Part shown: piece by piece, positions 6,983-41,500 of the stretch
How positions within the stretch are numbered: position 1 is the stretch's first letter
How the letters are laid out: each line of letters begins with the position of its first letter
DNA from: Theileria orientalis strain Shintoku
Taxonomy: Eukaryota; Apicomplexa; Aconoidasida; Piroplasmida; Theileriidae
NCBI RefSeq assembly: GCF_000740895.1
Contig: NC_025263.1
Coordinates: 1 to 64,000 of the forward strand
DNA length: 64,000 bases
Direction of reading: 5' to 3'
Notes under the pieces: model-generated
The model's input: the letters and a program-made list of their open reading frames with translations, nothing else
Told to the model about the DNA's origin: nothing
Databases searched by the model: none
Made by a program: the position numbers and the translations under genes

Positions 6983-9900
6983 TTACATAACTGTATTTAC
7001 ATGTTGAGGTTCATTCTTTTTCACATTTTGCTCAATAATAGATGCGATAGACTCATTTGCCGATACATCACTGGCTTTACAAGTTTTAACTAGGCGCCCC
7101 TCGTGTATAACCCAAACAGAGGTACAACTCTTCAAAACTGTTGCATCATGTGCTACAACAAAAGTGGTACAGTGACTAAAGTATTTCTGTATAAGTTCAT
7201 AAATTGGAACCCCTAGGTCATCATCTCTACGAGTAGGATCAAACAAGTCTTCTTCTGGTGGCTCGTCTACCACTATTAATCTGAAGAACTGCCTATACAA
7301 TACTAATCTGGCCAATGAAAGCGTTCTGAGTTGATTGTAGGAAAGTAGCAATTCATTATCAACACCGGATTTAGACGATTCGAGGGACTTGGATTTCCCA
7401 TTATCCAAAGTGTTAGGCCTTACTACATCTTGTTTCTTATAGTATAAAAGGGGCTCCTCTGGCGCTAGAATCGTATCCAGCAGCTTTCCGCCTGAAAGGT
7501 GGGTAACAAATTCCAAAAGACCACACTGATTAAGGGCGCTATTAATATCATCATCATTGAACAACTTTCTAGGATCAAGGAACCTACGGATAGTCCAACC
7601 CTTGAAGACAAATGGCAGTTGTGGTAGGACACCTATTATTTGTCTAAGAACAACCCTGGGGATTTCATTCAGGTCCTTGCCATCAAGCAGTACTTGACCA
7701 GTTCTGTTACTAACAATGTTCTGTAACACTGACAACAGGGTTGTCTTACCAGCACCTGTTCTGCCAACCATACCAATAATCTCAGATTTATTGGCAGTTA
7801 CTGTTAGATGTTTCAATATCATACTCTCTGGGTTACGGTCAAGAGAAGTGTACACACACACATCTTTCAATTCAACACCGGTATGTTCGGGAGTTATGTA
7901 CTTGCCAACATCGAGGATGTGTATTTTAGGATGATAGAATAGCCTTCTCAATCCATAGAATTTTCTGTTTTCAGACTTGAACTCAATCGCCCTTCGTTTC
8001 AACAGCTGCTTCTTGTCGAGGTCACTAACGTCTTTATTGGTTGGATTAATTAAATGTTCTTCATGGGTATTGGGACTTTTATCGAATCTAAGCTTAGTTC
8101 CCAAAGGAATAAAATAGCGGAACCTCTCGATTGAACTTATAACCATTCGAGTGCAAGCATACATAAACGAAAAGTCGCTGAATGACTTGTTCACATTCGT
8201 ACAAAGCGATAATGCCAGCCCAAAATATCCTACTGTCATTTTGTGTTTAGTGAATTTATCTAATACGATCGGAATAACAAGTATAATGAATGTAGTTAAT
8301 GGGAATATCCAAGTAAACAAGATTGTTGACCAAGAAACGGCGGCAGCAAAAAGGAACTTGGTTCTAGCATTATAATCCCTATGTTCGAGGAAATCACCTA
8401 GAAGATCTGAATTTCTGTTGAAGCTTCTGTAAACCGACCATCCGGAAATAGAACTTTCTATCACCGAGTTCATTTGAGCAAGAGATTCCATGAATCCAAA
8501 ATTCAATGCTACTGAAGTGTTTATATACCTCATCAATATGTAAATGTATATCAGAACCAGAGTTAGAAGAATGAATGGTACTGATATAGGAATCAAATAG
8601 AACAACGTAATTATGTTAGTGGCAGCCTGAATGAATGATAATAATACCAATGAAATGTTAAATCCAGTAATATCATCAGTCATCATAAGATCTCCGGACA
8701 GAAACGTTATCACCTGATTAATCTGCCTCTTTATTTTAACTACTGAAGAGCTATAGTTGAAAATTGTGTTGATGCAATATTCGTGAAGCTTGCGACATGA
8801 TACTATAGAGCCAGCTGTAAGCGCTACAGTTGCTAGAAATGATAATACAATAATGACTGATACAAATATGACTGTCACTCTCAATGCTGAATTACTACGT
8901 GATTTAATACCAGCAAGATCTACAAGAGCGCCCTTGTTGAAGTCGTTAATATTCTTGGTTATAAAATCTGATAAGTTGGTTGAAAAAACAAATTTAAGGT
9001 AATCTAATATGTTAAATGCCACTGTCAGAATTATGTATATAGAGAATGTAACCATGGCTGGCTTCATGAAAACAAGATATGGGTTGAATTTAGCATTTCC
9101 AAAGTGGTCTTTGATGTATTTCACAAAGGATTGCTGGTAGAGATTCTTGATTATCTCGACGCGGCGCGACCTTGAAGTGTTAGATAAACACAAACCAAGC
9201 ATATCGTTGGTTAAGCCATTCAAGGTATAAGGGCCGGTTCTAGAGGATGTTAAATACTTGAAGTCGCCCTCGTGCTTCTTGTTCTTCATAAAGTTGTGTA
9301 TAGTACTAACGAACTTCAATTCCCTGTTTTTTATGTTATAAATTGGCGTATTCTGGAATTGCGCTGGTTCACATGATTTGATGCAGATGTCCAGGATTTG
9401 TTTTGATGTTGTTAAAACAACACTCAAATCATCCTTAACTAATAACCCAGTTTTTATATTAAACAGGTTATTGAATATAGTTTTGGATACATAAGGATCT
9501 AGACCATGCAATGAAGAATCCAAGCACATCAAGAATGAACATTGATTGTTATTATACTCCTTGTTTACATTGTGGAATATCAAATAAGCATATATTGCAC
9601 GAGCCATTTCTACTCTCACTCTCTGACCACCACTCAATGAGTGTGCCTTATCTGACACTACCCTGAGGTCACCATTCTCCCAGGTTGATATGTCAAACTC
9701 AAGATCAACTGCCTTTAACACAGTGTTGTATATTTCTTCATCAAACTTATAACCAAATGTAATGTTGGATCTAATGGTACCCTGTTTTAGGAATATATCC
9801 TCAGAAGCATAGAATATAGGCATAGATGTGTGTAGAGGAATAACTGCCATGGAACCCCCAACCAGGGTCATCTCACCAAGCATTGATTTGATAAAGTTAG

Positions 9901-11563
9901 ATTTACCTGAACCCAGAACACCTGTGACAATAGCCATCTCACTACGTTTTAGTTCAAAGTTGACGTTTTTCAAAAAGGGTTTATAGTTCTTATTTAGTAG
10001 ATCCTGTCTAGAGTTGACCCATGTGAAGGCGGCGTCTTTGAAATATACGATAACATTAATAGGTATTTGGTCTGTGACATCAGTTAAAACAGCGGATGTT
10101 TGTGTAGAACCAACAAATTTATTATCAGCGGCATAGAAATTAGGAGGACAGCCAGAGAGATATTTATTTAACCTTTTATAACAGACAACTGCCATTCCAA
10201 CAATATTTATGGCCCTCGGAATTAAAAACATCGAAGTGACTATTCTCATGTATATATAAAACGTTGTCATAAATGCTGCGGTGTTAATATCAGTAATGAC
10301 AGCTGCATTATTAACAGACTTAACAAAGTACATTTTAATAATGTAAAAAGAGACGTTAATAGTTGTGCTGAATAGAAACATATTGACAAATGTGATGAAA
10401 ATTTTAACAACGATTAATGAAAGCTCATTATTCCTTGTTTGAGTAATAATATTAAATCCAATATCGTCGATCAACATTTTCTTTATAATACTTAATGAGC
10501 CAAGGATATCATTGTACTTCGTTACTTTGTAATCTCTCATGTATATGACGTACTTAAATATAACGGCGTTGAAAATTTCAATGACAACCATGAAGAACAG
10601 GAACAATGATCCTGTAACGTATAATACCCATAAATTACCCTTAACATGTCTCGACAGCAAATATACTCCATAAATAAAATTTGTTAAGAATTGTACAATG
10701 AATTTAGTTGACTCGAATGCCATTGCAATGTTAAAGGAGTCATAAAACACGTATGTGAAAATCTTGGGAGTAACTTCCTTGCTCTGATATCTTAGAGCTG
10801 GACAGAACAATGGGTTCTTGGAGCATTGTGAATGTGGATCACAGCTGTGAAGTACCTGATCACAGGTGTTCAAAATATTCTTGCCATTGATATTGTTGTA
10901 GAATACGCGCCTATGTGATAGAGAGTGGCGATAAGGTACGGTACCGTACAAGTAATGGAGTGTATAAATCATCCTGTAAAGATAATAATTCACATTTTCA
11001 AGTATAATCCCATCCAATATATGAAAGCCCATAATAGCCAACAACAACAATATTGAATTACTCACATGAATTGAAGGATCGTTTAAAATTTCAAGCAATT
11101 TTTTGACCAAAATGGATATGCTCATACTCAAAACGTTTCCAACAACGAGCCCTAAAAACAAAACAATCGACTTTCTCCATGACGTTAATAATATAGCGCG
11201 AAGGAGAATGGACCCGTATGGTTTAACGGGCTTCTTACTAGTCTTAGTGGCCTCGTGGAGGTCCAATCTGACCAATCCATCACTAACATGTTTGGAAAAA
11301 ATAGGTTCCCACTTCAATATTTGATCAGAAACCTGTAAGGGGTGGAGTTTATACGGTTCAATGTATTTTTTAGATAGCACTGAGACCCATCTGTTTACCC
11401 AGTGAAAAAATAAATATTTAAGAACGCTCGTCTCATCATAGTAACGGAATCCTTTATTTTTCCTATTTTTAAAATAAGATTTATGATACAGTTCACTATC
11501 CCAAAACAGAGAATCAGGATCGTCTTCACAAATCAGATTTTTATTATAGGAGCGTTCGTTCAT
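6983..11563 (-). CDS. ABC transporter, ABCC-like full transporter (paralogue 1)
   Basis: 1,526 residues from the ATG at 11563; a TTG two codons upstream is also in frame. Layout is TMD1-NBD1-TMD2-NBD2, as in ABCC/MRP-type transporters, in a single exon. Hydrophobic helices occur at about 120-520 and 850-1160. NBD1: Walker A GVLGSGKS near 546, LSGGQRVR near 644, Walker B FLMCLDSS near 677, where the catalytic Glu is Ser and the switch His is replaced (VVLTTSK). NBD2: Walker A GRTGAGKT near 1267, signature reduced to LSYNQ, Walker B VVDEPPEED near 1429 with Glu kept, and a switch His in VVAHDA near 1471. So only one composite ATP site looks canonical. It forms a tandem pair with 12934-17457. 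Substrate is unknown; Theileria subtelomeric ABC families have been described. Confidence 0.93.
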   Translation of the reverse strand: MNERSYNKNLICEDDPDSLFWDSELYHKSYFKNRKNKGFRYYDETSVLKYLFFHWVNRWVSVLSKKYIEPYKLHPLQVSDQILKWEPIFSKHVSDGLVRLDLHEATKTSKKPVKPYGSILLRAILLTSWRKSIVLFLGLVVGNVLSMSISILVKKLLEILNDPSIHVSNSILLLLAIMGFHILDGIILENVNYYLYRMIYTLHYLYGTVPYRHSLSHRRVFYNNINGKNILNTCDQVLHSCDPHSQCSKNPLFCPALRYQSKEVTPKIFTYVFYDSFNIAMAFESTKFIVQFLTNFIYGVYLLSRHVKGNLWVLYVTGSLFLFFMVVIEIFNAVIFKYVIYMRDYKVTKYNDILGSLSIIKKMLIDDIGFNIITQTRNNELSLIVVKIFITFVNMFLFSTTINVSFYIIKMYFVKSVNNAAVITDINTAAFMTTFYIYMRIVTSMFLIPRAINIVGMAVVCYKRLNKYLSGCPPNFYAADNKFVGSTQTSAVLTDVTDQIPINVIVYFKDAAFTWVNSRQDLLNKNYKPFLKNVNFELKRSEMAIVTGVLGSGKSNFIKSMLGEMTLVGGSMAVIPLHTSMPIFYASEDIFLKQGTIRSNITFGYKFDEEIYNTVLKAVDLEFDISTWENGDLRVVSDKAHSLSGGQRVRVEMARAIYAYLIFHNVNKEYNNNQCSFLMCLDSSLHGLDPYVSKTIFNNLFNIKTGLLVKDDLSVVLTTSKQILDICIKSCEPAQFQNTPIYNIKNRELKFVSTIHNFMKNKKHEGDFKYLTSSRTGPYTLNGLTNDMLGLCLSNTSRSRRVEIIKNLYQQSFVKYIKDHFGNAKFNPYLVFMKPAMVTFSIYIILTVAFNILDYLKFVFSTNLSDFITKNINDFNKGALVDLAGIKSRSNSALRVTVIFVSVIIVLSFLATVALTAGSIVSCRKLHEYCINTIFNYSSSVVKIKRQINQVITFLSGDLMMTDDITGFNISLVLLSFIQAATNIITLFYLIPISVPFILLTLVLIYIYILMRYINTSVALNFGFMESLAQMNSVIESSISGWSVYRSFNRNSDLLGDFLEHRDYNARTKFLFAAAVSWSTILFTWIFPLTTFIILVIPIVLDKFTKHKMTVGYFGLALSLCTNVNKSFSDFSFMYACTRMVISSIERFRYFIPLGTKLRFDKSPNTHEEHLINPTNKDVSDLDKKQLLKRRAIEFKSENRKFYGLRRLFYHPKIHILDVGKYITPEHTGVELKDVCVYTSLDRNPESMILKHLTVTANKSEIIGMVGRTGAGKTTLLSVLQNIVSNRTGQVLLDGKDLNEIPRVVLRQIIGVLPQLPFVFKGWTIRRFLDPRKLFNDDDINSALNQCGLLEFVTHLSGGKLLDTILAPEEPLLYYKKQDVVRPNTLDNGKSKSLESSKSGVDNELLLSYNQLRTLSLARLVLYRQFFRLIVVDEPPEEDLFDPTRRDDDLGVPIYELIQKYFSHCTTFVVAHDATVLKSCTSVWVIHEGRLVKTCKASDVSANESIASIIEQNVKKNEPQHVNTVM
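9552..9973 (-). repeat. 422-bp NBD1 tract identical between ABC paralogues 1 and 2 (copy 1)
   Basis: By eye I find no difference between this tract and 15485-15906 (constant offset 5,933), while sequence on both sides diverges at once. It covers Walker A through the signature motif and the region before Walker B of NBD1. This pattern fits recent gene conversion rather than selection alone, since synonymous sites are identical too. Confidence 0.85.
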
Positions 11564-11854
11564 ACTCAATAATCAGAACAATCCCTTCACTATTTATATA
11601 AGAAACATCATTAATAATAATCTATAATACATCAAATATAATCTGTGTAAATAATAATCTAACATTAAACATTAAACATTTAACATTTTTATGGTGTAAA
11701 AAAATAAAATATATTTCATCAAGTTCCACTTATATGATTTCATTATCATAGATATAATTAACTTAAAAATAAAATATACTACATTAAGGTGTGTTAAACA
11801 CTGATTTGTATACCAGAATTCTCTGTTTAAGACAACGTTCAATTTTATCATTGA

Positions 11855-12933: not shown

Positions 12934-15900
12934 CTAAATCCTTTTAACGTATTGCTCAATAATAGATGCGATAGACTCATTTGCGGATACTTCACTGGCT
13001 TTACACGTTTTTACTACACACCCCTCATGTATCACCCACACAGAGGTACAAGATTTTAATACGTTAACATCATGTGCAGCCACAAAGGTAGTACAATGAT
13101 TAAAGTTTTTCTGTAGAATATCATAAATTGGAACTGAAAGATCATCCTTTCTGACGTCGGCTTTTTCGGTATCTTCCTCCGGTGGTTCATCAACTACAAT
13201 AAGCCTAAAGAAGTGCCTGTATAACACAAGTCTGGCCAAATACAATATTCTAAGCTGATTGTAGGATAACAGCATATCATAATTGATATTCGGCTCTGTC
13301 AATTTGTTATAGCTTGAGGATTCGTCATTGTATCGCTTTGGTATGGATTGCGCATTCTTCGATTTCCGGTAGTACAACACTGGCTCCTCTGGAACCAATA
13401 CCGTATCCAATTTCTTACCGCCCTGTAGTTCATTTACGAAGTTCATAAGACCAGACTGGTCAAGCGCATCATTTATCTCATCATCACTAAACAGCTTTCT
13501 CGGATCAAGGAACCTCCTAATAGTCCAACCCTTGAACACAAATGGCAGTTGTGGCAACACACCTATAATCTGTCGAAGGACAACCTTGGGGATATCATTC
13601 AGGTCCTTGCCATCCAACAACACCTGACCTGTACGATTAGTCGATAAGTTCTGCAGTACAGATAGTAGTGTGGTTTTGCCGGCGCCTGTTCTTCCAACCA
13701 TACCAATGATCTCAGATTTACCAGCTGACACAGTGAAGTGTTTTAGAATCATGCCTTCTGGGTTAAGGTCGGGTGTTGTGTACACACACACGTCTTTCAG
13801 CTGGACACCTGTGCGATCATGGGTTAGGTAATCGTTGACATCGAGGATATGTAATTTAGGATGGTAGAATAGTCTTCTCAAAGCATAAAACCTTTTGTTT
13901 TCAACTTTAAATTCTATGGCCCTTCTCCTTAACAATTGTTTTTTATCCATCTCACTAACATGTTTATTCGCAGGATTAACTACATATTCTTCATGGGTGT
14001 TGGGACACTTGTCGAACTTGAGCTTTTGACCCGGAGGAATGAAATATCGGAACCTCTCAATTGATCCCATAAGTTGTTCAGTACAACCATACATAAACGA
14101 AAAGTTGCTGAAAGATTTGATGACGTTCATGGAAAGAGATAGGGCCAAACCATAATAACCAACCATCATATTGTACTTGGTGTATTTGTCCAGAATGATT
14201 GGGATTACCAGTATAATGAATGTGGTTAATGAGAATATCCATGTAAACAAGATTGTTGACCACGAGACGGCAGCAGCAAAGAGGAACTTCGATCGAGCAT
14301 TGTAATCCCTCTGCTCCATGAACTCTCGGAGTAAATCCGAATCCCTATTAAAACTTCTGTAAACAGATCCTCCAGAAATAGAACGTTCGATAACAGAGTT
14401 AAGGTGAACAAGTGATTCCAAAAACCCATAGTTCAAGTTGACTGCAGTACCTATAAACCTCCTCATAACATAAATGTATGTCAAAACTAGAGTGAGGAAA
14501 ATAAATGGAATTGAAATTGGAATTACAAAGAACAAAGTAATTAAGTTGGTGACAGTCTGAATTGATGAAAATAAGAATAAAGCAATAAATAACCCTGTAA
14601 TATCATCAGTCATCATAAGATCGCAAGAAAGGTATGTGATAACTTGACTAATTTGTTTCTTAATTTGAACTACAGAAGAACTATAATTGAAAATTGTTGT
14701 GATACAGTATTCATGAAGTTTCCGACATGAAATCAAAGAAGCCGCGGAAATGGCTAAAGTGGCCAACAAGGACAATGCGATAATTACTGATACAAATATT
14801 ACTGTCACTTTTAGTGCCGAATTACTGCGGGATTTAATCTCAGCAAGGTCCACTATGGTCCCCTTGTTGTGATCGTTGATGTTTTTGGTGATGTAGTCTG
14901 ACAAGTTGGTCGACAGAACGAATTTAACGTAATCCATAACATTTAATGCCACTGTGAGTAGTATATATATAGTGAATAAGAACGGTGCAGGCTTCATAAA
15001 TACAAAATATGGATTGAACTTATCTGGTTTAAAGTTGTCTTTGATGTAATTTACAAAGGAATACCGGTATAGTTCCTTGTTTTTCTCAGGGCGGCCGGAG
15101 CTGGAGCTTGAGCCCGAGGCGCACAGAGTGAGCATGTCTTTGTTTAGGCAATTAAGGGTGTAGTGTCCGGCTATAGCAGATGTCAAATAGTTGAAGTTGC
15201 CCTCGTGCTTATTGTTCTTCATAAAGTCGTGCAAGTTACTAAAGAATTTTATTTCTTTGTTTTTTATGTTATAAATTGGACAGTTAAGGAATTGGGCTAA
15301 ATCACATGACTTGGTGCACGTATCCAGGATCTGTTTCAATGTTGTTAAAACAACTGACAGATCATTCTTTGACAGTAACCCAGTTTTAAGGTTAAACAGG
15401 TTATTGAAAATGTTTTTGGATACGTAAGGATCTAGACCATGAAACGAGGCATCCAAACACATCAAGAACGAGCATTGGCTGTTGTTATACTCCTTGTTTA
15501 CATTGTGGAATATCAAATAAGCATATATTGCACGAGCCATTTCTACTCTCACTCTCTGACCACCACTCAATGAGTGTGCCTTATCTGACACTACCCTGAG
15601 GTCACCATTCTCCCAGGTTGATATGTCAAACTCAAGATCAACTGCCTTTAACACAGTGTTGTATATTTCTTCATCAAACTTATAACCAAATGTAATGTTG
15701 GATCTAATGGTACCCTGTTTTAGGAATATATCCTCAGAAGCATAGAATATAGGCATAGATGTGTGTAGAGGAATAACTGCCATGGAACCCCCAACCAGGG
15801 TCATCTCACCAAGCATTGATTTGATAAAGTTAGATTTACCTGAACCCAGAACACCTGTGACAATAGCCATCTCACTACGTTTTAGTTCAAAGTTGACGTT

Positions 15901-17457
15901 TTTCAACATTGGTTCATAGTTCTTGTTTAATAGGTCGTTGCGTGTGTTGACCCATGTGAAGGTGGCTTCCTTGTAGTAGACGACAACTTCATTGGGAAGT
16001 TTGTTTGTCACTGAATTTAATTCTGACGTAGCATGCGTAAAGCCAGTAAAGCAGTTGGCCTTGTTGTAAAAATTCGGCCCACACTTTTTCAGATAAGTGT
16101 TAACGCGCTTGTAAGATACGTAAGCCATTCCAATGATGTTGATTGACCTGGGAATAATAAACATAGAACTGACTATTTCCATGTATATGTAAAACGTTGC
16201 CAAAAAAGCTGCTGGGTTAATTTCATTAATTTCATTAGCACTATTGACCGACCTTACAAAATACATTTTAATAATGTAAAACGATATGTTAATAGATGTG
16301 CTAAATGAACACATATTAAGGAATGTAATAAAAATTTTAACAAAAATTAGCGAAAGCTCATTATTCCTGGTCCTAGTAATTATATTAAATCCAATGTCAT
16401 CACAGAACATTTTTTTAATATTACTTAGTGAGCCGAGGATATTAGTGTACTTAGTAACTTTGTAGTCCCTCATGTATAGGATGTACTTAAATATAACGGC
16501 ATTGAAAATCTCAATGACAACCATAAATAGCAGGAACAAACCTCCGGTAACGTATAATACCCACAAATTACCCTTGACATGTTTCGACATCAGGAACACT
16601 CCGTAAATAAAATTTGTTAAGAATTGTACAATGAATTTAGTTGACTCAAATGCCATTGCGATGTAGAACGAATCGTAAAACACGTAGGTGAAAATTTTGG
16701 GAGTCATTTCTTTGGTCTGATATCTTAGAGCTGGACAGAATAATGGGTTCTTGGAACAGGGCGAATCAGGCGAAAAGCTATGAAGTACCTGGTTGCAGGT
16801 GTTCAATAAGTTGGATCCATTGATGTTGTTGTAGTATAGGCGCCTGTGGGACATACCGTGACGATATGGCACTATGCCGTACAAGTAATGGAGTGTGTAA
16901 ATCATCCTGTAAACATAGTAATTTATATTCTCAAGGAGAACTCCCGTGAATATCTGAAGTGTTATTATGGCCAGCAACAACAATATCGTGTAGCCTACAT
17001 GAATCGAAGGGTCGTTCAATATTTCAAGCAATTTTTTTATCAGAATGGATATGCTTAAACTCAAAACGTTTCCTAATACGAGCCCTAAAAACAAAACAAT
17101 CGACTTTCTCCATGACGTTAATAATATAGCTCGAAAAAGAATAGAGCGGTAGGGGTTAGGGGACTTCTTAGTGGACCCGCGAACATCCAATCTTACTAAC
17201 CCGTCACTGACATGTTTAGAAAATATTGGTTCCCATTTTAAAATCTGATCTGAAACTTGTATTGGGTGTACCTTATAAGGTTCCATATACTTCCTCGAGA
17301 GTGCCAAGGCCCATTTGTTGAACCAGCTATAAAACAGATACCTGAAAATTGTTGCATCATCGTAATAGCTAAATCCATTGTCTTTTATTTTTTTAATATC
17401 GGATTTGTTATACACATGGCTCTCCCAAAACACGGGACTCGGGTCCTCGTCGGCCAT
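12934..17457 (-). CDS. ABC transporter, ABCC-like full transporter (paralogue 2)
   Basis: 1,507 residues from the ATG at 17457. Same TMD1-NBD1-TMD2-NBD2 layout. NBD1 has GVLGSGKS near 531, LSGGQ near 629 and FLMCLDAS near 662, where Ala takes the place of the catalytic Glu. NBD2 has GRTGAGKT near 1253, LSYNQ in place of LSGGQ, VVDEPPEED near 1417 and AAHDVN near 1459. The gene is a mosaic: its first 43 codons and 64 bp upstream are identical to ABC paralogue 3 (42894-43088), while a 422-bp NBD1 tract is identical to paralogue 1. A poly-Ser patch (SGSSSSSGR) replaces the segment between NBD1 and TMD2 that varies among paralogues. The product should be an integral membrane transporter; substrate unknown. 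Confidence 0.93.
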   Translation of the reverse strand: MADEDPSPVFWESHVYNKSDIKKIKDNGFSYYDDATIFRYLFYSWFNKWALALSRKYMEPYKVHPIQVSDQILKWEPIFSKHVSDGLVRLDVRGSTKKSPNPYRSILFRAILLTSWRKSIVLFLGLVLGNVLSLSISILIKKLLEILNDPSIHVGYTILLLLAIITLQIFTGVLLENINYYVYRMIYTLHYLYGIVPYRHGMSHRRLYYNNINGSNLLNTCNQVLHSFSPDSPCSKNPLFCPALRYQTKEMTPKIFTYVFYDSFYIAMAFESTKFIVQFLTNFIYGVFLMSKHVKGNLWVLYVTGGLFLLFMVVIEIFNAVIFKYILYMRDYKVTKYTNILGSLSNIKKMFCDDIGFNIITRTRNNELSLIFVKIFITFLNMCSFSTSINISFYIIKMYFVRSVNSANEINEINPAAFLATFYIYMEIVSSMFIIPRSINIIGMAYVSYKRVNTYLKKCGPNFYNKANCFTGFTHATSELNSVTNKLPNEVVVYYKEATFTWVNTRNDLLNKNYEPMLKNVNFELKRSEMAIVTGVLGSGKSNFIKSMLGEMTLVGGSMAVIPLHTSMPIFYASEDIFLKQGTIRSNITFGYKFDEEIYNTVLKAVDLEFDISTWENGDLRVVSDKAHSLSGGQRVRVEMARAIYAYLIFHNVNKEYNNSQCSFLMCLDASFHGLDPYVSKNIFNNLFNLKTGLLSKNDLSVVLTTLKQILDTCTKSCDLAQFLNCPIYNIKNKEIKFFSNLHDFMKNNKHEGNFNYLTSAIAGHYTLNCLNKDMLTLCASGSSSSSGRPEKNKELYRYSFVNYIKDNFKPDKFNPYFVFMKPAPFLFTIYILLTVALNVMDYVKFVLSTNLSDYITKNINDHNKGTIVDLAEIKSRSNSALKVTVIFVSVIIALSLLATLAISAASLISCRKLHEYCITTIFNYSSSVVQIKKQISQVITYLSCDLMMTDDITGLFIALFLFSSIQTVTNLITLFFVIPISIPFIFLTLVLTYIYVMRRFIGTAVNLNYGFLESLVHLNSVIERSISGGSVYRSFNRDSDLLREFMEQRDYNARSKFLFAAAVSWSTILFTWIFSLTTFIILVIPIILDKYTKYNMMVGYYGLALSLSMNVIKSFSNFSFMYGCTEQLMGSIERFRYFIPPGQKLKFDKCPNTHEEYVVNPANKHVSEMDKKQLLRRRAIEFKVENKRFYALRRLFYHPKLHILDVNDYLTHDRTGVQLKDVCVYTTPDLNPEGMILKHFTVSAGKSEIIGMVGRTGAGKTTLLSVLQNLSTNRTGQVLLDGKDLNDIPKVVLRQIIGVLPQLPFVFKGWTIRRFLDPRKLFSDDEINDALDQSGLMNFVNELQGGKKLDTVLVPEEPVLYYRKSKNAQSIPKRYNDESSSYNKLTEPNINYDMLLSYNQLRILYLARLVLYRHFFRLIVVDEPPEEDTEKADVRKDDLSVPIYDILQKNFNHCTTFVAAHDVNVLKSCTSVWVIHEGCVVKTCKASEVSANESIASIIEQYVKRI
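15485..15906 (-). repeat. 422-bp NBD1 tract identical between ABC paralogues 1 and 2 (copy 2)
   Basis: Partner of 9552-9973; both edges are sharp. It carries the whole Walker A to signature segment of NBD1. Confidence 0.85.
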
Positions 17458-18854: not shown

Positions 18855-21212
18855 TTATTCGTGGAGGTAGTTTGAAGCTTCTCTGCTTTTTCTCGGCCTA
18901 GTCGGCACTGATGAATCGAAGTCGAGCTTGTTAATGAACTTGATCCGTTCACAATATCTTGAATATTCCTCTTGGCGATTATTGGGAACTACTGGCTCTA
19001 CTCCTACAAAAAAATAGTCGTATCTAGAAAGACAATATTTAAAGGTATCGTTGTTCCATGTTCTACTTGTATTTATTATTCTGAACTTGTACACAAACAG
19101 TGTGTTAGTGAACACGAGTATTACAATGTCGTATGTATTTGCTTCTCTCATATACCACTCGACTCTATGAGGGTATACGCCCGCTGGGAATGTGTATAGA
19201 TCATATCTGTGGTGTTTCAGCCTGTTAAATGCATAGCCAGGGTTTGTTTGAGCGTATAAAACGTTATCCTTAGCATTTCTAGCATAATCCCATTTCATAT
19301 GATAGTAGCTTCTATGATAATCGGTGTCAAACTCAATTTTATTGAGTGTTCTATGTTTTTCAGTTTCTCGGTCCTTTTTAAATGTGTCAATTGGGTATGG
19401 AACGTTATCCATAACTATTATCCTGAAAGGATCTGTTATGTATTTCATGGCCTCATCATCGACTGACAAGTCTAGTATATTTTTGGCACGTTGAATGTCA
19501 TTTTCCGTATAAATACCCGTAAATTGAGCAACAGACGTTAAAGTGGTTAACAATTGATTGATTTCTTCTGTTGAGAGTGTGGTATAATCACATTTTTGTA
19601 TTTGATTAACCTTTATCCATTTGGAAAAGTAGCTGTTTTTATCATTGGGTTTGAAAGCACTTCCGTGCAAACAGAACAACAAGGGGTGATTATAGTTCCG
19701 GTAATAGTAGACGTACACATCGCCGTAAGCGTAGTCGTAAAAAAGCTTATCTATTGCCTTTTGGCCGGTTTCGTCAAACAACTGGATAATGGCGTCCTTA
19801 TTGTTCCTAACGGGAAGCGACATCTTCAGGGCTGTTATATAGTACAGATGGATAGTCTTTACGGAGCTTATTGCATGTTTGTAACATTTAAAACCTTTTT
19901 TTTCCAACTCGGAACAAGACTCCTTGGATACGGTGATGCTCGTCTGGGTCCCAGATAGGGTTGTATACTCGGTTGTGCCTTGGTGATTTATTGCGGAGAA
20001 TGGGTAGCTGGGCCTTGTGAAGTGCAGCTGCATCTTGGCCGAATACTTGAGGTTGTATCTGACGTCGTTCAAAAATTCAAGAAGTCGGATCTTATCATTC
20101 ATAATAGTTGCAACAGTATCATCTTTGTCCCACTGCATAGTTCCAGGGACTTCGTTACTTCTGACAGTGAGTTTGTAGTACTCATTGGTGTTAGCAGTAC
20201 CAGCAGTGCCGTCCTTGAACTCCAAGATTACTAGCAGAGGGTCTTGGAAATCTGTGTCAAAAGTGTGGAAATATCCCGTGACCTTGACCAAATGTCTCAT
20301 TTTCTTGGCTGGTTCCTGGGTGGCAGTGGCGTAGTTCACCTTGTAAGCGTTATAGCCTCCATGGGCACTTTTGAATATAACATCACCCAGCGTGAATCCA
20401 TTGCTATCATTGGCACCCTGCAGCCCGTTGTGTTCATACGTGTGCTTATTGTAGGATTTTACGGTGGTCTTAGTGATCTTAATGGTGATGATTTTCTCGA
20501 CAACATAATCGTGAATGGAGTATATGGCAGAGGCATTTTCCTTATTACTTGATATTTCGGATCTGGCATTTTTGGGCACAGTATCGAGACAGAGCTGCAC
20601 TGGATTCAAGTAGCCCATGATAGAAATTAGATTATCCAATAGTTTCTGCGTATTAGAGTCACTGGAACCGGTTCCCGTATTGACACAGCTAGTGAAACCC
20701 TCAACCTCTACCCACTTGGCATAGTCAATGTTGACCTGTATGTTGCGCTCTGGGTCGCCTGTTCTCAAAGGTTTATAAACCTTGTTTTCATAGCACACCA
20801 TCAGTGGTCTGGGATCCAGACCGTAAAAATAAACATACAAATGGTTGTACCCATTCTTATAGGTCGTTTTTATTTTGGTGTTGCCTGAACTGTTGTAGAA
20901 ATTTGCCTCAATGTATTTCGGAGTGTTTGTAACGGTATATTGTTGTCCTCGTGCAGTCAAAGTAACATTGATGCTGGGTATTAAGAACTTGATCTCGTCG
21001 GCTCTTGTGGCACTAATGGTTTGTGAAAAGCACTTGAAATTGGAAGCTGCTAAGATTGGGATGTCTACGGCATTGACTGGTATATTTTGAGGCTGCCCAG
21101 ATGTCGTTCTGGTAAGATCAGGTATTTGAGGCAATAAAATTCTAAGGGCGCTATCTACGTCAGATTTATTGTATTGAGTCTGCTTATCTATCAGTGCGAT
21201 TGCTGTGTACAA
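18855..21212 (-). CDS. 3' reading-frame block of the large modular gene
   Basis: A 785-codon open block whose first in-frame start-like codon is TTG, so it is not an independent gene. It continues the module series of 21537-27477: type A near block residue 131 (PRPLMVCYENKVYKP), type B near 324 (DPLLVILEFKDG), type A near 507 (HPLLFCLHGSAFKP), and a terminal C-like unit near 680-715. Its opening residues align with an internal segment of exon 1 (TAIALIDK against NTIVLLTEK) exactly where the upstream frame (ending at 21191) loses register. Either the gene is inactivated by a one-base loss or the base is missing from the assembly. Confidence 0.7.
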   Translation of the reverse strand: MYTAIALIDKQTQYNKSDVDSALRILLPQIPDLTRTTSGQPQNIPVNAVDIPILAASNFKCFSQTISATRADEIKFLIPSINVTLTARGQQYTVTNTPKYIEANFYNSSGNTKIKTTYKNGYNHLYVYFYGLDPRPLMVCYENKVYKPLRTGDPERNIQVNIDYAKWVEVEGFTSCVNTGTGSSDSNTQKLLDNLISIMGYLNPVQLCLDTVPKNARSEISSNKENASAIYSIHDYVVEKIITIKITKTTVKSYNKHTYEHNGLQGANDSNGFTLGDVIFKSAHGGYNAYKVNYATATQEPAKKMRHLVKVTGYFHTFDTDFQDPLLVILEFKDGTAGTANTNEYYKLTVRSNEVPGTMQWDKDDTVATIMNDKIRLLEFLNDVRYNLKYSAKMQLHFTRPSYPFSAINHQGTTEYTTLSGTQTSITVSKESCSELEKKGFKCYKHAISSVKTIHLYYITALKMSLPVRNNKDAIIQLFDETGQKAIDKLFYDYAYGDVYVYYYRNYNHPLLFCLHGSAFKPNDKNSYFSKWIKVNQIQKCDYTTLSTEEINQLLTTLTSVAQFTGIYTENDIQRAKNILDLSVDDEAMKYITDPFRIIVMDNVPYPIDTFKKDRETEKHRTLNKIEFDTDYHRSYYHMKWDYARNAKDNVLYAQTNPGYAFNRLKHHRYDLYTFPAGVYPHRVEWYMREANTYDIVILVFTNTLFVYKFRIINTSRTWNNDTFKYCLSRYDYFFVGVEPVVPNNRQEEYSRYCERIKFINKLDFDSSVPTRPRKSREASNYLHE

Positions 21213-24200
21213 TGCTTTGATTCAAGAGTGCGCAATAGTTTGATGAGGAGTTCGTTGTTTTTATCTGTCAATTCACTGTGAGCCTGTTCCTTGCTGAACT
21301 CTTTTATCAACTCTCTGGAGGAAGTATAATCTAATACTTGCCAAAATAATCCTTTCTCGTACTTTTTATGATAGTAATATTCCCATCTAACGCGGCCTGA
21401 ACAATTTATATACACACAAATAAGTATTTAGGCAGTTAATTGTAGTCACGTGTACATGTGTGTATGGATATATAATAACTGATAAAAGATCTTGATCAGT
21501 TAGTAAATAAACGTATTAGTTATATAGGCTGCTTACCGCCAGCATTGTCTTTAAGCTCAAAAGCTGCCAGCAAGGGGACACCAACCTTGTTACTGAAATA
21601 AACATTAACGGTATTCAATATTTTATTCTGGAAATCGTTAATTGCTCCAGGCTTATTCGCACCACTATTCCAATAAGTCAGAATGTTAGAATTATATATT
21701 ACAAAAGAAGCTTTGTTGACTGCATTTTTGGGAGTGTGTGTGTACCTTGTAAACCCTTCGACGGGATTAGTGCTGTGTGCCACTTGAACCCTGCTGTTAT
21801 AATTGTCGTCCTTTTTGTCCAACTGGTAAGTCACTGTGTCGTGAGCGGTATCATTGTCTGCAATCATATGGTCAAATATTGTTTTCTCATCAGTATAAGT
21901 TTCCAGATCCTTTATGTTTTTACCGGAGCTTTTATCAGTGTCGAATAAGGACAGCCGATAATACCTTTTTGCGATACTATTATTCTTAAAATTTATAGAC
22001 ACCAGTAATGGCTTGTTGTGACTTGTATGATATCTGTTGTAGTACACCTCCTCTTGGGCAATAGAACTGTTTTTATCCTTGATATCATTTTGTAAAACTA
22101 GCTTAGTGGTACAACTGTCTTCCCTGCATACGTTAACGTCGCAAGGCTTCGGACTGGTATGTTGGTACACATAAGGAACGAATAATTTTGATGAGTCGTC
22201 AATCTGGGACTGAGTTGGATATTGGGACCAGTTGACAACATTTGAACATTTGAGCTCGCTAAATAGAGCATCCAGCAGTTGCTGATTGGGATTTGTTTCA
22301 TCAATTGTACAAGATTTAATTGAATCTACTTTAACCCATTTGGTATGCTCGGTGTCCTTATTCAGTGGCCTGTAAGCCTTATTCTCATGGCACAGCAACA
22401 CAGGCCTCGGATCATCTTCATATGAATACGTATAATACTTAGTAACTACAGCCGTACTGGAATCTTCAGTTTCTAATTTTGGACAAAATAAATATTCTCT
22501 ATTCTGTAAACTTGTAGTATCAGTACTGGTTTTATAAAGTGAAATTTCGGTGTAAGAAGGAGTTGGAGTCCCACCAGTTGGTATTAAAAATCTCAATTCA
22601 GTTTTATCGTTTGCTTTAAGGGAACGGCCCTCCCGGCCAAACCTAATTTCGTGTTGGTACATATTGAATCCCAATTCTTCTAACTTATTAGATTCCTTTT
22701 TAGTGACAGATATTGGATTAGTTGGAATGTTTGTGAGCTGAGGATTCGGTATAAGTTCGGGATTAGTCTTTTTAATGGCTTCATATACAGTATTATTATC
22801 ATATGCATCATGCTTTTCTGTTAATAATACTATTGTATTGATGGCCAAAAACTCTATTTTTTGCAACAAATTTACCAACACATTTTTATCCGAAGTGAGT
22901 TTGGAGTTTATTTGGTTAATGTCAATAGATTGCCCTAATAGGCTACTATACTCATTCTGATCCAGTAACTGCCAATAAAGTTCGCCATTCTTCTTTTTAT
23001 GGTAATAATATTCAACACTGTTGTTTTGTTTGGTAAATTGAACCAATAGGGGCAACATAACTCTATTACTATGATAAACACTAAGGCTATTATAGACAAT
23101 ATTTTGGAGCCCAGTAATTACAACCATTGCTCCACTCTCATTCTGACTCATAAGGGCATCACCGTTATATATTACACAGGCCTTTTTGGAATTATTGTTT
23201 GCTGTAGGCGTGTGAGTGTATTTACTAAAGCCTTTTTGTTGAAGTTCCTGAACCGATTCCTCAGCTAGGCTGATCTTGCCGCCATTGTAATTATTTTGGG
23301 TAGTACTGTCAATCTTTTGATCTATTCTGTAGGTAATCAGGATACTTAGACCGTCATTCTCCTCCAATAGGGGTGTTAGCACACTGTGGTCGTCAGTGTA
23401 ATTGTCCATTGTGGATATATTTTTGCCCTGAGCCTTGTCAGTTGTAAAGCCGGACATTTTATAGTACTTTGTGCCACCGATGAAGTATAAAACGATTAGT
23501 AAGGGAGTGTTTGTCTCATCATATTTGTTATAGTAGACTTCGGAACGTGAGTAGACCATCTTAGCATATTCTCCGTCAGGCTTTAGGGTGAGCTTTTCGT
23601 TGCCAGCCTTCAACACAGTAATGTTTTTTCCACTCTGTTGGCTCGCTGGCGTAAACTCATATTTGAGCATCAGCTTGCATGGCACATACTCCTGACTACT
23701 AGTTGGCTTTTGGTAGGTGATGATGGAATTCGGGCTGCTGGCCAGACCAAATTTGTAATATGTTTGTTCTGCTACTTCTTTTAACTTAGATAACAATTGA
23801 ACCATCAGCTTATTGTCATTGTTGATCAACTCATCGTGTATATTGGCCTTATTGATATTTTTTCCTAAAAACGCATTTATGGCGGTTTCATTTATCGGTT
23901 CCCAGTGTATAGCGGTTTTTTCGTACAGTTTTTGATAAAAATAGTCAACCTTATTATTATGGAAAAATCCGACCAATAGAACCTCGTCCGATTCGGGGCT
24001 AAAATAGACATCAATTTGTTTTATCATAAGTTCTTGTACATTATCAATAGATACTGCTTTCTTGTTGCTGGTGTTCCACTGCGTTAAAATGTTGAGCTTA
24101 TGTAATATATAGGATTTTTTGATGGTTCCACCTTTAGGTGTGTGTTTATATCTCATAAAGCCACTGCTCTTAATTTTATTTGAATTATTGGTTGTGTTTT

Positions 24201-27200
24201 CTACATTTACCTTAGAACTGTTGTAGGTGTTGTCCTTGTGGTCGATCTGGTAAGTTATGCTGCCGAGAACTGCGTCGTTGTCCGCAATCATCAATGACAA
24301 AAACTCCTTTTCGCTCGGGTACGCCGGGAGCCCAAATGTGGTCTTGGCGCTGGTGTTGGTTTTATCGCTTTCAAATTCTGAGAACCGGTAGTATTTTTTG
24401 TGATCCTGACGATTCTTCTCCTCGCAATATAACACTAACATAATTGGGTGTGTGAATGTCATATCGTATTTGTTGAAGTAGAGATACTGGGAGTAGACCA
24501 TGTAGTTTTTGTGGTCTCCTTCCCTCAGTATCACCTTGTTACTGCATTGTGCATCTTTGCAAACTTGAATGTCACCGATCTTGTCATACATTAGCGCGTT
24601 CCTGTAAAATTTGAACAATTTGCAGGTCGAGTGTTCAGTGGTTGCTTTTGGAATTATGTAGGTTTCAATCACGTTCAACATCAGCAATGTTTTACGAAGT
24701 TCTTCCAATAAAGTAGAATTTTGACCTGTTTCGCAGGGACACTTGGTAATAGTATCCACAGGTACCCATTTGGTATAGTAGCTCTCTTTGTTCAAGGGTT
24801 TATACGCTTTGCCTCCATAGCAGACCAACAGAGGCCTTTTGTCCATATCTTCGCTGAAAAACACTTGAACATTCCCCTTGCAAGTGTTGTAAAAGAGCTT
24901 GTTTATGGGCGTTAGGCCATTTGAATCTGAGTACAATTTTATTTCTAAAACGTTGTTATGTCCGCGGAGGCGAAGGAACAGCCGTAAGCCGCCAATGGCA
25001 TTTATTCCCGTTTCTCCGTCGAGTCGATGTTCATAGTACTTAAACCATTTAAATTCACCCTCTCCTGGCAACTCTACTGCATCAGACAGGGATATTGGTA
25101 AGGTAGGACCGGTCTGTACCTGCCTGCCACTAACTTCGTAAATTTTACCTCTATAAGTTTTAGATCCGCCGTCTCCCTGCCTGTTGCCGATTATAACCTG
25201 GAGTGTATTGGCACAATCATAACGTATCTGATTCAGTTTTTCACCGAGTGCTTCAAAATTGGCAAGGTCAATTTGTTCATCGACCTTTTGATAAAGCTTG
25301 GCTGGGCCCGTATTTGACTTCAATATGTAATATGGCCGATAACTATTGTCGTTTTTGACAGCAACCAACAGTGGCACGCTGAAATCAGCATCATCTTTGA
25401 AGTAGTAGGTCACCACCTCGGAGGCGGTGGTGTAAGGATTTACAGCTATGGTTGCAGATATGCACTTTGCGTCACGTTCATTGGTACCAAATTTGATGCA
25501 ACTTGCATCGTAGGACACATTTCCTAGTCTGTACCCCTGTTTAGCAGTGTGAACATATTTATCATAGCAGAATTTGCAGCCAGTAACTGATGTGCCGGCC
25601 GTTTTGCTAACCACATTCTGTACGGGGGTTCCATTGAATGTGTGTACTGTATATGGAGCTTGGCCAGAAAGCTTTATATTTACTGGGTTTAGCAACTCGC
25701 TGACTTGAACGAGAGTTTCAATCAACTTATTGACTTCACTTCCCGAAACTAGAGCCTCGCAGTGAGAAATAGAACTAACACGGACCCATTCCTCAAAATA
25801 TTTATCCAAGCTGTGTGGTCTATAGGCCTCACCTCCGTAGCATAGTAACATGGGTCTAGCATCAAGTTGATTTCCGGGAGCTGAGTAATAGGTATATAGT
25901 TTATTATTGTTATCGTTGCCAGAAGCTTTTAGATAGTAAATGAAATCCCTTTTGGTTTTGTCGTCATTGTAAAATGAGATCTCAGTGTATTTCCCTGCCT
26001 CGGCACTGGTGGGAACTAATACTCTTAATTGTAAACTTTCTGAAGATCCGTTAGGTTGAATTGAATGAGAATAGCATTTAAATCCAGATGATTGAAGAGG
26101 TGTGGAATTTTCAAGGAGCACATTAACTTCATTTGGCTGATGTTCGTAATTGGATTCAGATAATGTTGAAGGAGTTGCTGATGCAAGAACTGATGTAACA
26201 AGGCTCTTTTCGTATAGGCTCGTTTTATCCAGTAGTAATATAATATTATCACCGTCCTTCCACTCTCCATTTTGGAATTTGTAATGATAGAGCTTGTTCA
26301 AATAGTCAACGAAAACCATCAAATAAGGCTCGTGATTGAGATGTTGATAGACTCTAACACTTTTTATGACCTTTGGTGTGTCCTTCAACTGTATTACAGT
26401 TGAATTATGCATCAGATGGTCCACGAAAAACTTTTTTCCATTGGATGCGGTGTGCTCTACACACCCGTATCCAGCGGTTTTGAACTTGTCGTTTTGGAAA
26501 AAACTAGCCTTCAGGCTGTTTTGGGTAGTCTCTACTATGTCCGATTCCACGCAGTAGTTATCAATATTGTATGCGTGATCGGATTCGGTAGTGACCAGCG
26601 CCACGTTAATTGTATACTTGAACCCATTCTTGCAAGCGTAATAATTGAGTTTATCATACAAGAAATCTAAAAAGGAAGGATCGTGAAAAGCTGGAAAGTA
26701 AACGTGATGCCATTTTTCCTCAGGTGTGTAGCCATAAAATTGTCTTTTGTCAAATGTGTACAAAAATTCTATTAAAAGAGGAAAATCGTTATATGAATAA
26801 ACCAGTATTGAATATACATTGTTTTTGTATGGAATGTCCAAATTTGACTCAGTAGACCTTTTAACATCATTTTCAAATTTAGTTTTCAATTCTGTATTAT
26901 TATACAATATTTTCCCTAATCTTGTTGACTCCAAGTTATAATTTCTTAATGTGTACCTTTTAAACCTATCTTCTGAAAATTTCAGATTTGTAACATAAAC
27001 TTTAGAATTATTACTGTCATAATCAGCAATATTAGACAAATCTATATCAACAATTGCATCAATATCTGAATGGATTCTGGGCTTTATGTTTGTAACTAAT
27101 TTTTTAGAAAAAATAGCCTGAACATCTAATGATTCCTTTTCATTTATAAGTAAAACAGAAGATTGTTCTAAATTTAATTGAATAATGGAAGGAGTTTCAA

Positions 27201-27477
27201 ACGACCATACGACAGATGCTGACAGCAGCAGCTGGTCGCTCACAAGAAGCGGGTCGAAATACAGTCTTTCCTTTCCATTATATATGTCTTTTAATAAAAC
27301 TGGATTGGAAAACTTATGTGTATATAAATTTTGTAACTCTGTCGTTTTTTTTACGGTAACCTGACTAGATCCGCTGGAATAGTCTGCGATTTTACCGATA
27401 TTTAATTCTAAACAGATAGTCTTTTGAATAAAAAACCTAAATAATAAATATGAAAAAAATGTGTAAACAGTTTTCAT
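18855..27477 (-). CDS. Very large modular secreted protein (spliced; apparent frameshift)
   Basis: Gene model: ATG at 27477, exon 1 to 21537, intron 21536-21397, exon 2 to the stop at 18855. The exons total 8,483 nt, one short of a whole number of codons, because the frame slips at 21216-21218. With that slip ignored the protein would be about 2,827 residues. It has a signal peptide (residues 1-24) and no later membrane span. Three recurring beta-rich module types appear. Type A has RPLLVCYGGxAYKP then KWVxV. Type B has PLLVxxxF then KYYRLSxF. Type C has VYxS, PLL, YYYHKK, then W. Their order is roughly C C A B A B C B C A B C A B A C. I do not recognise a named domain; the modules may be distant FAINT relatives. 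Probably exported; function unknown. Confidence 0.75.
21397..21536 (-). other. Predicted 140-bp intron in the large modular gene
   Basis: Minus-strand donor GTAAGC at 21536 and acceptor TTGTTCAG ending at 21397. Splicing joins a phase-1 codon (G|GC = Gly), so that DNAGG continues into RVRWEYYYHKK. This restores a type-C module seen uninterrupted elsewhere in the protein (EYYYHKKKNGELYW), which is strong support for this intron. Without splicing the frame ends within 17 bp. Confidence 0.88.
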
Positions 27478-38524: not shown

Positions 38525-41500
38525 TTAACTTTTCTTAACATTTTCTTCAATAATTGATGCTATTGATTCGTTTGCTGATACGTCGCTGGCTTTACAAGTT
38601 TTTACTAGTGAACCCTCGTGTATAACCCATACCGAGGTACATGTTTTTAAGACGTTAACATCATGTGCTGTGACAAACGTGGTACAGTGGCTGAAGTGTT
38701 TCTGTAAGAGCTCATAAATTGGAACTGCAAGGTCGTCCTTTTTAGCAGCGGCGGCCTCTGGATCTTCCTCTGGGGGCTCATCAACTACTATAAGCCTATA
38801 GAAGTGTCTATACAGCACAAGTCTAGCCAATGAAAGAGTTCTGAGTTGAGTATTGGACAGTAACATATCACTTTCATCTCCAGGTTTAGTATATTTCTTT
38901 GTGATGGATTGAGCACCTTTTGTTTTCTGATGATACAAAAGAGGCTCCTCAGGTACCAAAATACTATCCAACTTATTAGCTCCAGGAAGCTCGTTAACGA
39001 AGTTCAAAAGACCACACTTATCCAAGGCGATACTGATATCGGCGTCACTGAACAGCTTTCTGGGATCTAAAAACCCCCTAATAGTCCATCCCTTAAATAC
39101 AAAGGGTAGTTGTGGCAACACACCGATAACCTGTCTGAGGACAACCTTGGGGATATCATTCAATTCTTTACCATCCAACAACACCTGACCTGTTCTGTTG
39201 TCAATTATGTTCTGTAGTACTGACAACAGGGTTGTCTTGCCAGCACCCGATCTTCCTACTATACCAATAATCTCTGCTTTATGGGCTGCCACCGTAATAT
39301 TTTTCAAAATCATACCTTCAGCGTTGAGCTCTGGCGTTGTGTACACATAAACATCCCTCAATTCAACTCCTGAATGATCAGAATTTAGGTAAAGGCCAAC
39401 ATCGAGTATATGTATTTTAGGATTATAGAATAGCTTCCTCAATCCGTAAAACTTCTTGTTATCGGTTTTGAACTCAATAGCCCTTCTACTTATCAATTGT
39501 TTTTTGTCAACACCGGTAAGATCCTTATTCGAAGGATTAACTAGGTATTCTTCATGGGTGTTAGGACATTTATCGAACTTAAGCTTGTGGTCCATAGGAA
39601 TGAAGCACTGGAACCTATCGATTGAACTGATAGTTGTTTGAGTACATCCATACATAACCGAAAAGTTGCTGAAAGATTTGATCACATTCATAGAAAGGGA
39701 TAGTGCCAAACCAAAATAACCTACGGTCATCTTGTATTTCGTGTATTTGTCTAGCATGATTGGTATAACCAGTATAATGAATGTGTTTAGCGAGAATATC
39801 CAAGTGAACAATATTGTGGACCAGGAAACGGCTGCACCGAAGAGATATTTAGTTCTGACTTTATAATCACTTTGTTCCAGGAAATCTCTGAGCAAGTCTG
39901 AATTTCTATTGAAGCTTCTGTAAACAGAACCTCCTGATATGGCACGTTCTATTACACAGTTCATTTGAGATTGGGCCTCCAATAACCCAAAATGTAAGTT
40001 CACCGTAGCACCTATATACCTCCTCATAATATACATGTATATCAGAACCAGAGTGAGAAGAATGAAAGGAACTGATATGGGAATTACATAGAACAAGGTA
40101 ATAACGTTTGTTACGGTCTGAATGAAGGAAAATAATAATAAAGCAGTAAATAATCCAGCGATATCATCTGTAATCATAATATCACAAGACAGGAAAGTTA
40201 TAACTTGATTAATATGTTTCTTAATTTTGACTACCGCTGACCTATAGTTGAAAATTGCATTGAGGGAGTATTCATGAAGCTTCCGACATGATACTATAGA
40301 TCCTGCTGTTAGTGCGACCGTGGCTAAAATGGACAACGTGATAATTATTGATACGAATATGACTGTAAGTTTCAGTGCTGAATTACTACGCAATTTAATT
40401 TCAGCAAGATCTACTAAATCTCCCTTATTGTAGTCGTTAATATTCTTGGTTATGTAGTCTGATAAGTTGGTAGACAGAACAAATTTTACGTAATCTAATA
40501 TGTTTAATGCCACTGTCAGTATTATGTATACCGCGAATATAACTGCAGCGGGCTTCATGAACATAACATACGGCTTGAACCGAAGTTTTCTAAATAGATT
40601 TTTTTCGTATTTTACAAATGAATCCCTGTATAGTTGTTTGTTTAACTGGGCACGACTCGACATGGAATTGTCAGATAAACAAAGACCTACCATATCATTT
40701 GTTAAGCTATTCAAATCGTAAGGGCCGCTTCTAGCCGATGTTAAATACTTGAAGTCGCCTTCGTGTTTCTTGGTCTTAATAAAGTCGTGCAGGGTATTCA
40801 AGAAATCACATCCCTTGTCTTTAATGTTATAAATGGGTGGATTGGGAAATTGAATTATATTACATGATTTAGTGCACTTGTCGAGACCCTGTTTAGAGAT
40901 TGTCAAAACTACTGACAGGTCATCCTTTACCAATATACCAGTTTTTACGTTAAACAGGTTATTGAATATAGTTTTGGACACATATGGATCTAAACCGTGA
41001 AACGAGGCGTCCAAACACATCAAGAATGAACACTGGCTGTTGTTGTACTCCTTGTTGACTTGATGGAACACCAAATAAGCATACACTGCTCTAGCCAACT
41101 CCATCCTTACACGTTGACCTCCGCTCAATGAAGGTGCATTGTCTGACAATAGTCGGAGGTCACCCTTCTCCCAGGTTGATATGTCATACTCAAGTTCAAC
41201 TGCACTCAACACAGTTTTATACAGGTTTTCATCGAAACGATGACCAAACACAATGTTGGATCTAATGGTACCCTGTTGCAGAAAAATATCCTGCGATGCA
41301 TAAAATATGGGCATTGAGGTGTGTAGTGGTACAACAGCCATAGAGCCCCCAACTAGGGTCATCTCACCAAGCATTGATTTTACAAAGTTAGATTTACCAG
41401 AGCCTTTGGAACCAGTGACAATGGCCATCTCGCCACGTTTCAACTCAAAGTTTATATTTTTCAAATAAGGTTCGTAGTTCTTGTTTAGTAGATCACGTCT

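What the first reader, a model, noticed from the sequence alone, without database searches (positions are those of the whole stretch)
18855..27477. Possibly undescribed modular protein with three alternating beta-rich module types
I do not recognise the repeats: type A (PLLVCYGGxAYKP then KWVxV), type B (PLLV then KYYRLS), type C (VYxS then YYYHKK and W). They alternate along about 2,800 residues behind a signal peptide. All share a PLL core strand, so they may descend from a single ancestral fold, perhaps an outgroup of FAINT. This is the best candidate here for an unnamed exported family.
Basis: partly seen in the sequence, partly recalled or inferred. Interest (0 to 1): 0.75.

Follow-up and report, generated by a model that had tools for sequence, protein, structure and literature searches.

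The report
Giant secreted protein of FAINT-like beta-domains
A cattle blood parasite carries, some of them near its chromosome ends, a family of very large, probably secreted proteins built from about sixteen small beta-sheet domains that protein databases do not recognise but that look like strongly diverged relatives of the parasite's well-known yet unexplained FAINT domain.

Summary
On the minus strand at 18855-27477 lies a gene of about 2,830 codons: exon 1 with a signal-peptide-like start, one GT-AG intron, and exon 2, whose frame breaks near 21215-21218. Profile HMMs find 15 modules of three types (order C C A B A B C B C A B C A B A) plus a weak FAINT-like last module. None of 42 modules matches PF04385 or another Pfam family significantly. 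Family proteins match 29 loci in this genome, 6 within 50 kb of a chromosome end, with mosaic identity between copies. Best reading: an unnamed, divergent branch of the FAINT superfamily forming long binding or scaffold proteins. Function is inferred.

The parts
21537..27477 (-). Exon 1 (ATG at 27477), 1980 codons plus 1 base; signal-peptide-like N-terminus MKTVYTFFSYLLFRFFIQKTICLELN
21397..21536 (-). Intron, GT-AG, 140 bp
   Evidence: read from sequence; gap between tblastn pieces
18855..21396 (-). Exon 2 to the stop; reading frame changes near 21215-21218, so this copy is broken as assembled; annotated relatives P0003-P0005 run on
26707..26982 (-). Module, C-like (P0001 166-257)
   Evidence: 42 bits
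26209..26490 (-). Module C (P0001 330-423); the equivalent module of a chromosome-2 copy, not this one, is reached by the FAINT-only profile
   Evidence: 65 bits
25750..26079 (-). Module A (467-576)
   Evidence: 96 bits
25303..25605 (-). Module B (625-725)
   Evidence: 74 bits
24712..25041 (-). Module A (813-922)
   Evidence: 122 bits
24307..24651 (-). Module B (943-1057)
   Evidence: 111 bits
23866..24189 (-). Module C (1097-1204), keeps a Trp at the place aligned with the FAINT Trp
   Evidence: 107 bits
23389..23706 (-). Module B (1258-1363), in the AlphaFold2 model
   Evidence: 102 bits
22936..23259 (-). Module C (1407-1514), in the AlphaFold2 model
   Evidence: 127 bits
22279..22662 (-). 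Module A (1606-1733), in the AlphaFold2 model
   Evidence: 96 bits
21883..22218 (-). Module B (1754-1865), in the AlphaFold2 model
   Evidence: 121 bits
21544..21768 (-). Module C (1904-1978), first part; split by the intron
21305..21391 (-). Module C, last part (the YYYHKK and W stretch) in exon 2
20664..21035 (-). Module A (P0002 60-183)
   Evidence: 111 bits
20118..20483 (-). Module B (P0002 244-365)
   Evidence: 99 bits
19563..19889 (-). Module A (P0002 442-550)
   Evidence: 123 bits
19050..19283 (-). Last module, weak direct FAINT match over most of the FAINT profile (P0002 644-721; E 0.13 and 0.079, not significant alone)

Best explanation
The gene encodes a probably secreted, soluble chain of about 16 small beta-domains joined by short, partly helical connectors. 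The domains (types A, B, C) share one predicted fold of seven to eight strands and a closing helix, and are a strongly diverged branch of the FAINT (PF04385) superfamily that Pfam misses; the Ile-Trp signature of FAINT is mostly lost. How it most likely works (inferred): the signal peptide sends it out of the parasite, and the string of domains acts as a long multivalent binding or scaffold protein for host or parasite-surface partners. Copies near chromosome ends exchange segments, which diversifies the array. Shown: sequence anatomy, modules, copy number, mosaic identity. Supported but not proven: common descent with FAINT. Predicted: fold, signal peptide. Inferred: location in the host, binding.
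For: Modules. FAINT link: hhalign of 25 FAINT against 14 C modules scores 23.9 (P 5e-4), collinear over 73 columns, best of 100 column permutations 14.3, reversed 6.8; against 42 mixed modules 21.4, best permutation 12.9. In that alignment the invariant FAINT Trp falls on a column with Trp in 5 of 14 C modules, and the late Trp on one with 11 of 14. A 135-row FAINT-only profile hits one module of a chromosome-2 copy at E 8.7e-5 (short edge fragment L034) and 0.0022-0.0025 (the same module in the full frames L018 and L012), and P0013 at 0.0078, in register with strands 5-8. AlphaFold2: FAINT pLDDT 89.4, B-C-A-B pLDDT 83.7, same order of strands and final helix. 29 loci. Mosaic identity between three telomeric copies. 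dN/dS 0.33 over exon 1 against the chromosome-1 copy. No clear membrane helix.
Against: 0 of 42 modules reach FAINT in Pfam. A first 30-seed FAINT profile hit none of the 18 proteins at E below 1. In the FAINT-only search no module of P0001 itself was listed; the match lies in other copies. Type A alone against FAINT is hardly above controls (score 12.4, best of 60 permutations 11.9). hhalign probabilities stay low (at most 31%). On equal slices FAINT is further from the modules (P 0.0055-0.053) than B from C (2.9e-4). One shuffled control reached E 0.044 in one round. The two models could not be superposed (no coordinates available). Nothing shows expression, location or binding. This copy is frame-broken as assembled.
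Confidence: 0.6

Rival explanations
1. The modules are an independent beta-domain, not homologous to FAINT; the likeness comes from convergence on the same simple strand order.
For: No Pfam hit; type A against FAINT is near the control level; on equal slices the modules are nearer to each other (B-C 2.9e-4, C-A 1.4e-3) than to FAINT (0.016, 0.016, 0.053, 0.0055); simple beta proteins (OspA, LolA, beta-propellers) also appear at low Z among PDB matches.
Against: In-register profile matches for type C with controls; the FAINT Trp column is Trp in 5 of 14 C modules; the linkers of the same alignment give P 0.81 and 0.58.
Confidence: 0.2
2. A variant surface-antigen or decoy family: the main role is antigenic diversity by subtelomeric recombination, and binding is secondary.
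For: 6 of 29 loci lie within 50 kb of a chromosome end, where 4.5% of the four chromosomes lies; mosaic identity between copies.
Against: 23 of 29 loci are further in; no membrane anchor in the subtelomeric form; dN/dS 0.33 shows net constraint.
Confidence: 0.3
3. A decaying subtelomeric pseudogene family without function.
For: The window copy has a frame break; the match at C2:2181104-2182420 contains 3 stop codons, though introns could explain some.
Against: Continuous annotated proteins of 2824-2828 aa in three records; dN/dS 0.33; matches at 29 loci.
Confidence: 0.12
4. Part of the Tpr family.
For: Tpr proteins are a hypervariable Theileria multigene family with variable N-terminal regions (passages of PMC10730637).
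Against: Tpr is defined by a conserved C-terminal block with five membrane helices (PMC10730637); no such run of hydrophobic segments ends this protein.
Confidence: 0.02

Closest known systems
FAINT domain, PF04385/DUF529 (Theileria secreted proteins)
   Same: Small repeated domain in secreted Theileria proteins; same predicted order of strands and closing helix; collinear profile alignment with type C; type C of a relative reached by a FAINT-only profile; FAINT Trp column is Trp in 5 of 14 C modules
   Different: No Pfam-level match; the Ile-Trp pair, with Trp invariant in 25 FAINT rows, is mostly lost; a PLL strand and, in type A, a CYGGxAYKP-like stretch; larger modules with helical connectors
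Neighbouring FAINT-repeat protein of the same window (46556-54616)
   Same: Giant repeat protein with 23 FAINT matches, subtelomeric
   Different: Ordinary FAINT by Pfam; no A, B or C match at E 0.01
Tpr multigene family of Theileria
   Same: Fast-evolving Theileria multigene family
   Different: Defined by a five-helix C-terminal membrane domain (PMC10730637), absent here
SVSP family of T. parva and T. annulata
   Same: Subtelomeric, secreted (names and abstracts seen); FAINT-bearing (recalled)
   Different: Not compared by sequence here

Membership tests
FAINT (PF04385) | Score above the Pfam cut-off | tested here: not met
   0 of 42 modules list FAINT at E up to 10; P0001 and P0002 none up to E 10; P0008 and P0017 none up to E 0.01
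FAINT (PF04385) | Near-invariant Ile/Val-Trp in strand 4 | tested here: inconclusive
   Trp invariant in 25 FAINT rows; the adjacent Ile-Trp pair is not seen, but the aligned column holds Trp in 5 of 14 C modules and in 6 of 42 mixed modules
FAINT (PF04385) | Sequence-profile relationship | tested here: inconclusive
   Type C: P 5e-4 and FAINT-only HMM E down to 8.7e-5 in another copy, with controls; type B weaker (P 0.0045) and type A near control level (P 0.037); hhalign probability at most 31%
FAINT (PF04385) | Same fold | tested here: inconclusive
   Same strand and helix order in AlphaFold2 models; coordinates could not be superposed and strand directions were not seen
FAINT (PF04385) | Found in secreted Theileria proteins | tested here: met
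   Signal-peptide-like N-terminus (no SignalP run); all 16 homologues found are named T. orientalis
Tpr family | Conserved C-terminal block with five membrane helices | tested here: not met
   No strongly hydrophobic C-terminal segments; definition from PMC10730637
SVSP family | Sequence similarity to T. parva or T. annulata SVSPs | not tested
   No SVSP sequence was compared

The most novel reading that the evidence does not exclude
A, B and C modules and FAINT are branches of one piroplasm-specific fold with no clear counterpart in the PDB, from which T. orientalis built a family of about 29 loci of giant secreted or membrane-anchored multidomain proteins (B-C-A-B core, with a C-terminal hydrophobic helix in several inner-chromosome members) that database annotation has missed.
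Probability: 0.5. Interest if true: 0.65.

Novelty: new variant of a known kind. Interest (0 to 1): 0.5.

Why it matters
FAINT domains are abundant in Theileria secreted proteins and have no known function. If these modules are diverged FAINTs, the FAINT-type repertoire of T. orientalis is larger than Pfam-based counts (142 FAINT-domain proteins in Shintoku; PMC9323827, passages), and models of the fold are at hand on which binding surfaces can be tested. It would also name a family of very large, probably secreted proteins in a parasite that harms cattle through its blood stage.

Full report
Source. The window is the first 64 kb of contig C4 of a 9.01 Mb, 6-contig genome and begins in telomere repeats (1-322). 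Contigs C1 (2,746,313) and C2 (2,216,979) have exactly the lengths given for the contigs of two proteins named Theileria orientalis strain Shintoku (P0004, P0011), so the genome is very probably that strain.

Gene. On the minus strand, an ORF of 1985 codons (21520-27477) and one of 785 (18855-21212) are parts of one gene. P0004, a 2828-aa protein, aligns collinearly over both. Exon 1 ends at a GT at 21536, exon 2 starts after an AG at 21397 (read). Within exon 2 the frame changes near 21215-21218. This copy is therefore broken as assembled, while relatives of 2824, 2828 and 2825 aa run on there (P0003-P0005); the C-terminus of P0005 is nearly identical to that of the window gene. No base is proposed to mend it. 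The N-terminus looks like a signal peptide. The most hydrophobic 19 residues of P0001 (mean 1.64, residue 1533) and of P0002 (1.50) are no clear membrane helices; the former lies in a modelled helix-strand connector.

Modules. Profiles seeded with 5 A, 5 B and 3 C modules were iterated on 18 proteins (P0001-P0018) and gave 53, 71 and 125 matches in the last round, the C round including A and B members. Seed-only profiles find their own type, with one cross match (C to an A module, E 0.018); the types are joined by iteration over the relatives. Best-type assignment in the window gene: C C A B A B C B C A B C (P0001) and A B A (P0002), with a last module that only the FAINT profile sees weakly. 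All 16 homologues found carry all three types; all are named T. orientalis. Identity to the query is 27-91%. Those searches were limited by length and shared words, so they do not prove species restriction.

Fold. From 25 FAINT sequences (3 from the window), AlphaFold2 gave a FAINT model with mean pLDDT 89.4: strands 12-17, 20-25, 33-36, 39-43, 51-57, 61-66, 71-77, 83-85 and helix 87-100. From 13 rows it gave a B-C-A-B model (608 residues, window 21883-23706) with mean pLDDT 83.7. Module C: strands 145-150, 160-167, 175-180, 186-188 (and 194-196), 205-213, 219-226, 231-239, 242-247, helix 250-257. Module A: 332-337, 347-355, 369-377, 384-391, 421-429, 435-440, 443-449, 453-460, helix 475-483. 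Module B: 4-7, 10-18, 29-34, 37-42, 51-60, 70-76, 78-83, helix 84-90 (seven strands of 3 or more residues). Strand directions and contacts were not shown, so an antiparallel meander is my inference. Between C and A the model has helices and one strand (250-312). Neither model has a convincing PDB relative.

Link to FAINT. Against: 0 of 42 modules list FAINT in Pfam, a 30-seed FAINT profile found nothing at E below 1, and the Ile-Trp pair is mostly lost. For: hhalign of FAINT (25 rows) with C modules (14 rows) scores 23.9, P 5e-4, probability 31%, collinear over 73 columns; 100 column permutations reach at most 14.3 and the reversed profile 6.8; with 42 mixed modules 21.4 against 12.9 and 10.2. 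In that alignment the invariant FAINT Trp falls on a column that holds Trp in 5 of 14 C modules, and the late Trp on one with Trp in 11 of 14. On slices of the B-C-A-B alignment without secondary structure P is 0.016 (B1), 0.016 (C), 0.053 (A), 0.0055 (B2), against 0.81 and 0.58 for the two linkers; module against module it is 2.9e-4 (B1-C), 1.4e-3 (C-A), 2.9e-3 (B1-A), 2.1e-4 (C-B2), 0.026 (A-B2), so FAINT is further off than most module types are from each other. With larger alignments (135 FAINT) P is 8e-4 (C), 0.0045 (B) and 0.037 (A); scores 17.9, 15.4 and 12.4 against best permutations of 10.5, 10.9 and 11.9 among 60 each. A profile built from FAINT-only loci, searched against all held ORFs in four rounds, hits the C module of a chromosome-2 copy best at E 8.7e-5 (short fragment L034), 0.0022 and 0.0025 (full frames L018, L012), P0013 at 0.0078, and the last module of the window gene at 0.13 and 0.079, in register; no module of P0001 was listed; 108 reversed or shuffled controls had best E 14, 0.044, 0.47 and 3.5 in the four rounds. 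I conclude common descent for C (likely), B (probably) and A (through C and the fold).

Family in the genome. Protein searches with P0001, P0017, P0002 and P0012 (E at most 1e-3) merge into 29 loci; the best E is below 1e-10 at 25 of them (the script printed 26 because I had typed 3.8e-10 as 1e-10). 6 of 29 lie within 50 kb of a chromosome end, where 4.5% of the four chromosomes lies. Not every locus was checked for modules. Counts are lower bounds. Two shapes appear: long forms with a signal-peptide-like start and no membrane helix (this gene and its closest relatives), and shorter frames with B-C-A-B-like order, four of which end in a hydrophobic C-terminal segment (ORFs in L016, L017, L021, L024; 1.71-2.37; a fifth, L020, reaches 1.37).

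Evolution. Exon 1 of the window and the chromosome-1 copy differ by dN 0.048 and dS 0.148 (ratio 0.33; 0.31 without residues 250-370), with dS from 0.03 to 0.39 across seven segments. Identity among the window, chromosome-1 and chromosome-2 copies is mosaic: around residues 59-358 the other two are 99-100% identical while the window differs (down to 0.70); around 459-558 the window is nearest chromosome 2 (0.98); around 959-1158 nearest chromosome 1 (0.98-0.99). This is what exchange between chromosome ends would give.

Neighbourhood. The window also holds four ABC transporter genes and five ORFs with FAINT matches (with a profile slightly mixed with family members), one with 23.

Literature. 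Passages were seen of PMC9323827, PMC5921998, PMC3505731, PMC10730637 and PMC11237503, plus section 16 of PMC10730637, and abstract and sections 13 and 18 of PMC9610513. [quoted passage not shown] PMC9323827 mentions 13 Shintoku hypothetical proteins with a single C-terminal membrane helix (ENOG502RZ20) that could be the inner-chromosome members; this was not tested. None of the passages or listings seen describes these modules; supplements were not open to me.

Function. Not shown. The most economical reading of a secreted, soluble chain of beta-domains in a fast-exchanging family is multivalent binding at the host interface.

Noticed in passing
window 46556-54616 (+): ORF of 2687 codons with 23 FAINT matches; from about residue 1752 on, matches recur with the same E-values every 256 residues, which suggests near-identical tandem units.
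   Followed up: partly
window 6983-11569, 12934-17457, 38525-43024 (-), 59197-63738 (+): Four ABC transporter genes beside FAINT genes in the telomere-proximal 64 kb.
   Followed up: partly
window 1-322: CCCTAAA telomere repeats: the window starts at a chromosome end.
   Followed up: yes
   Followed up: partly
L016, L017, L021, L024 (ORF ends); L061-L063: Shorter inner-chromosome members with B-C-A-B-like order end in a hydrophobic C-terminal segment; at L061-L063 a FAINT ORF lies downstream on the same strand.
   Followed up: partly
P0017 (MACK_002559): A diverged member carries Gly/Thr/Cys-rich low-complexity inserts between modules.
   Followed up: no
window A modules, e.g. 24712-25041: Type A has a recurrent cysteine pair (PLLxC and a Cys after the KWV stretch) in the five seed modules, possibly a disulphide (alignment).
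   Followed up: no
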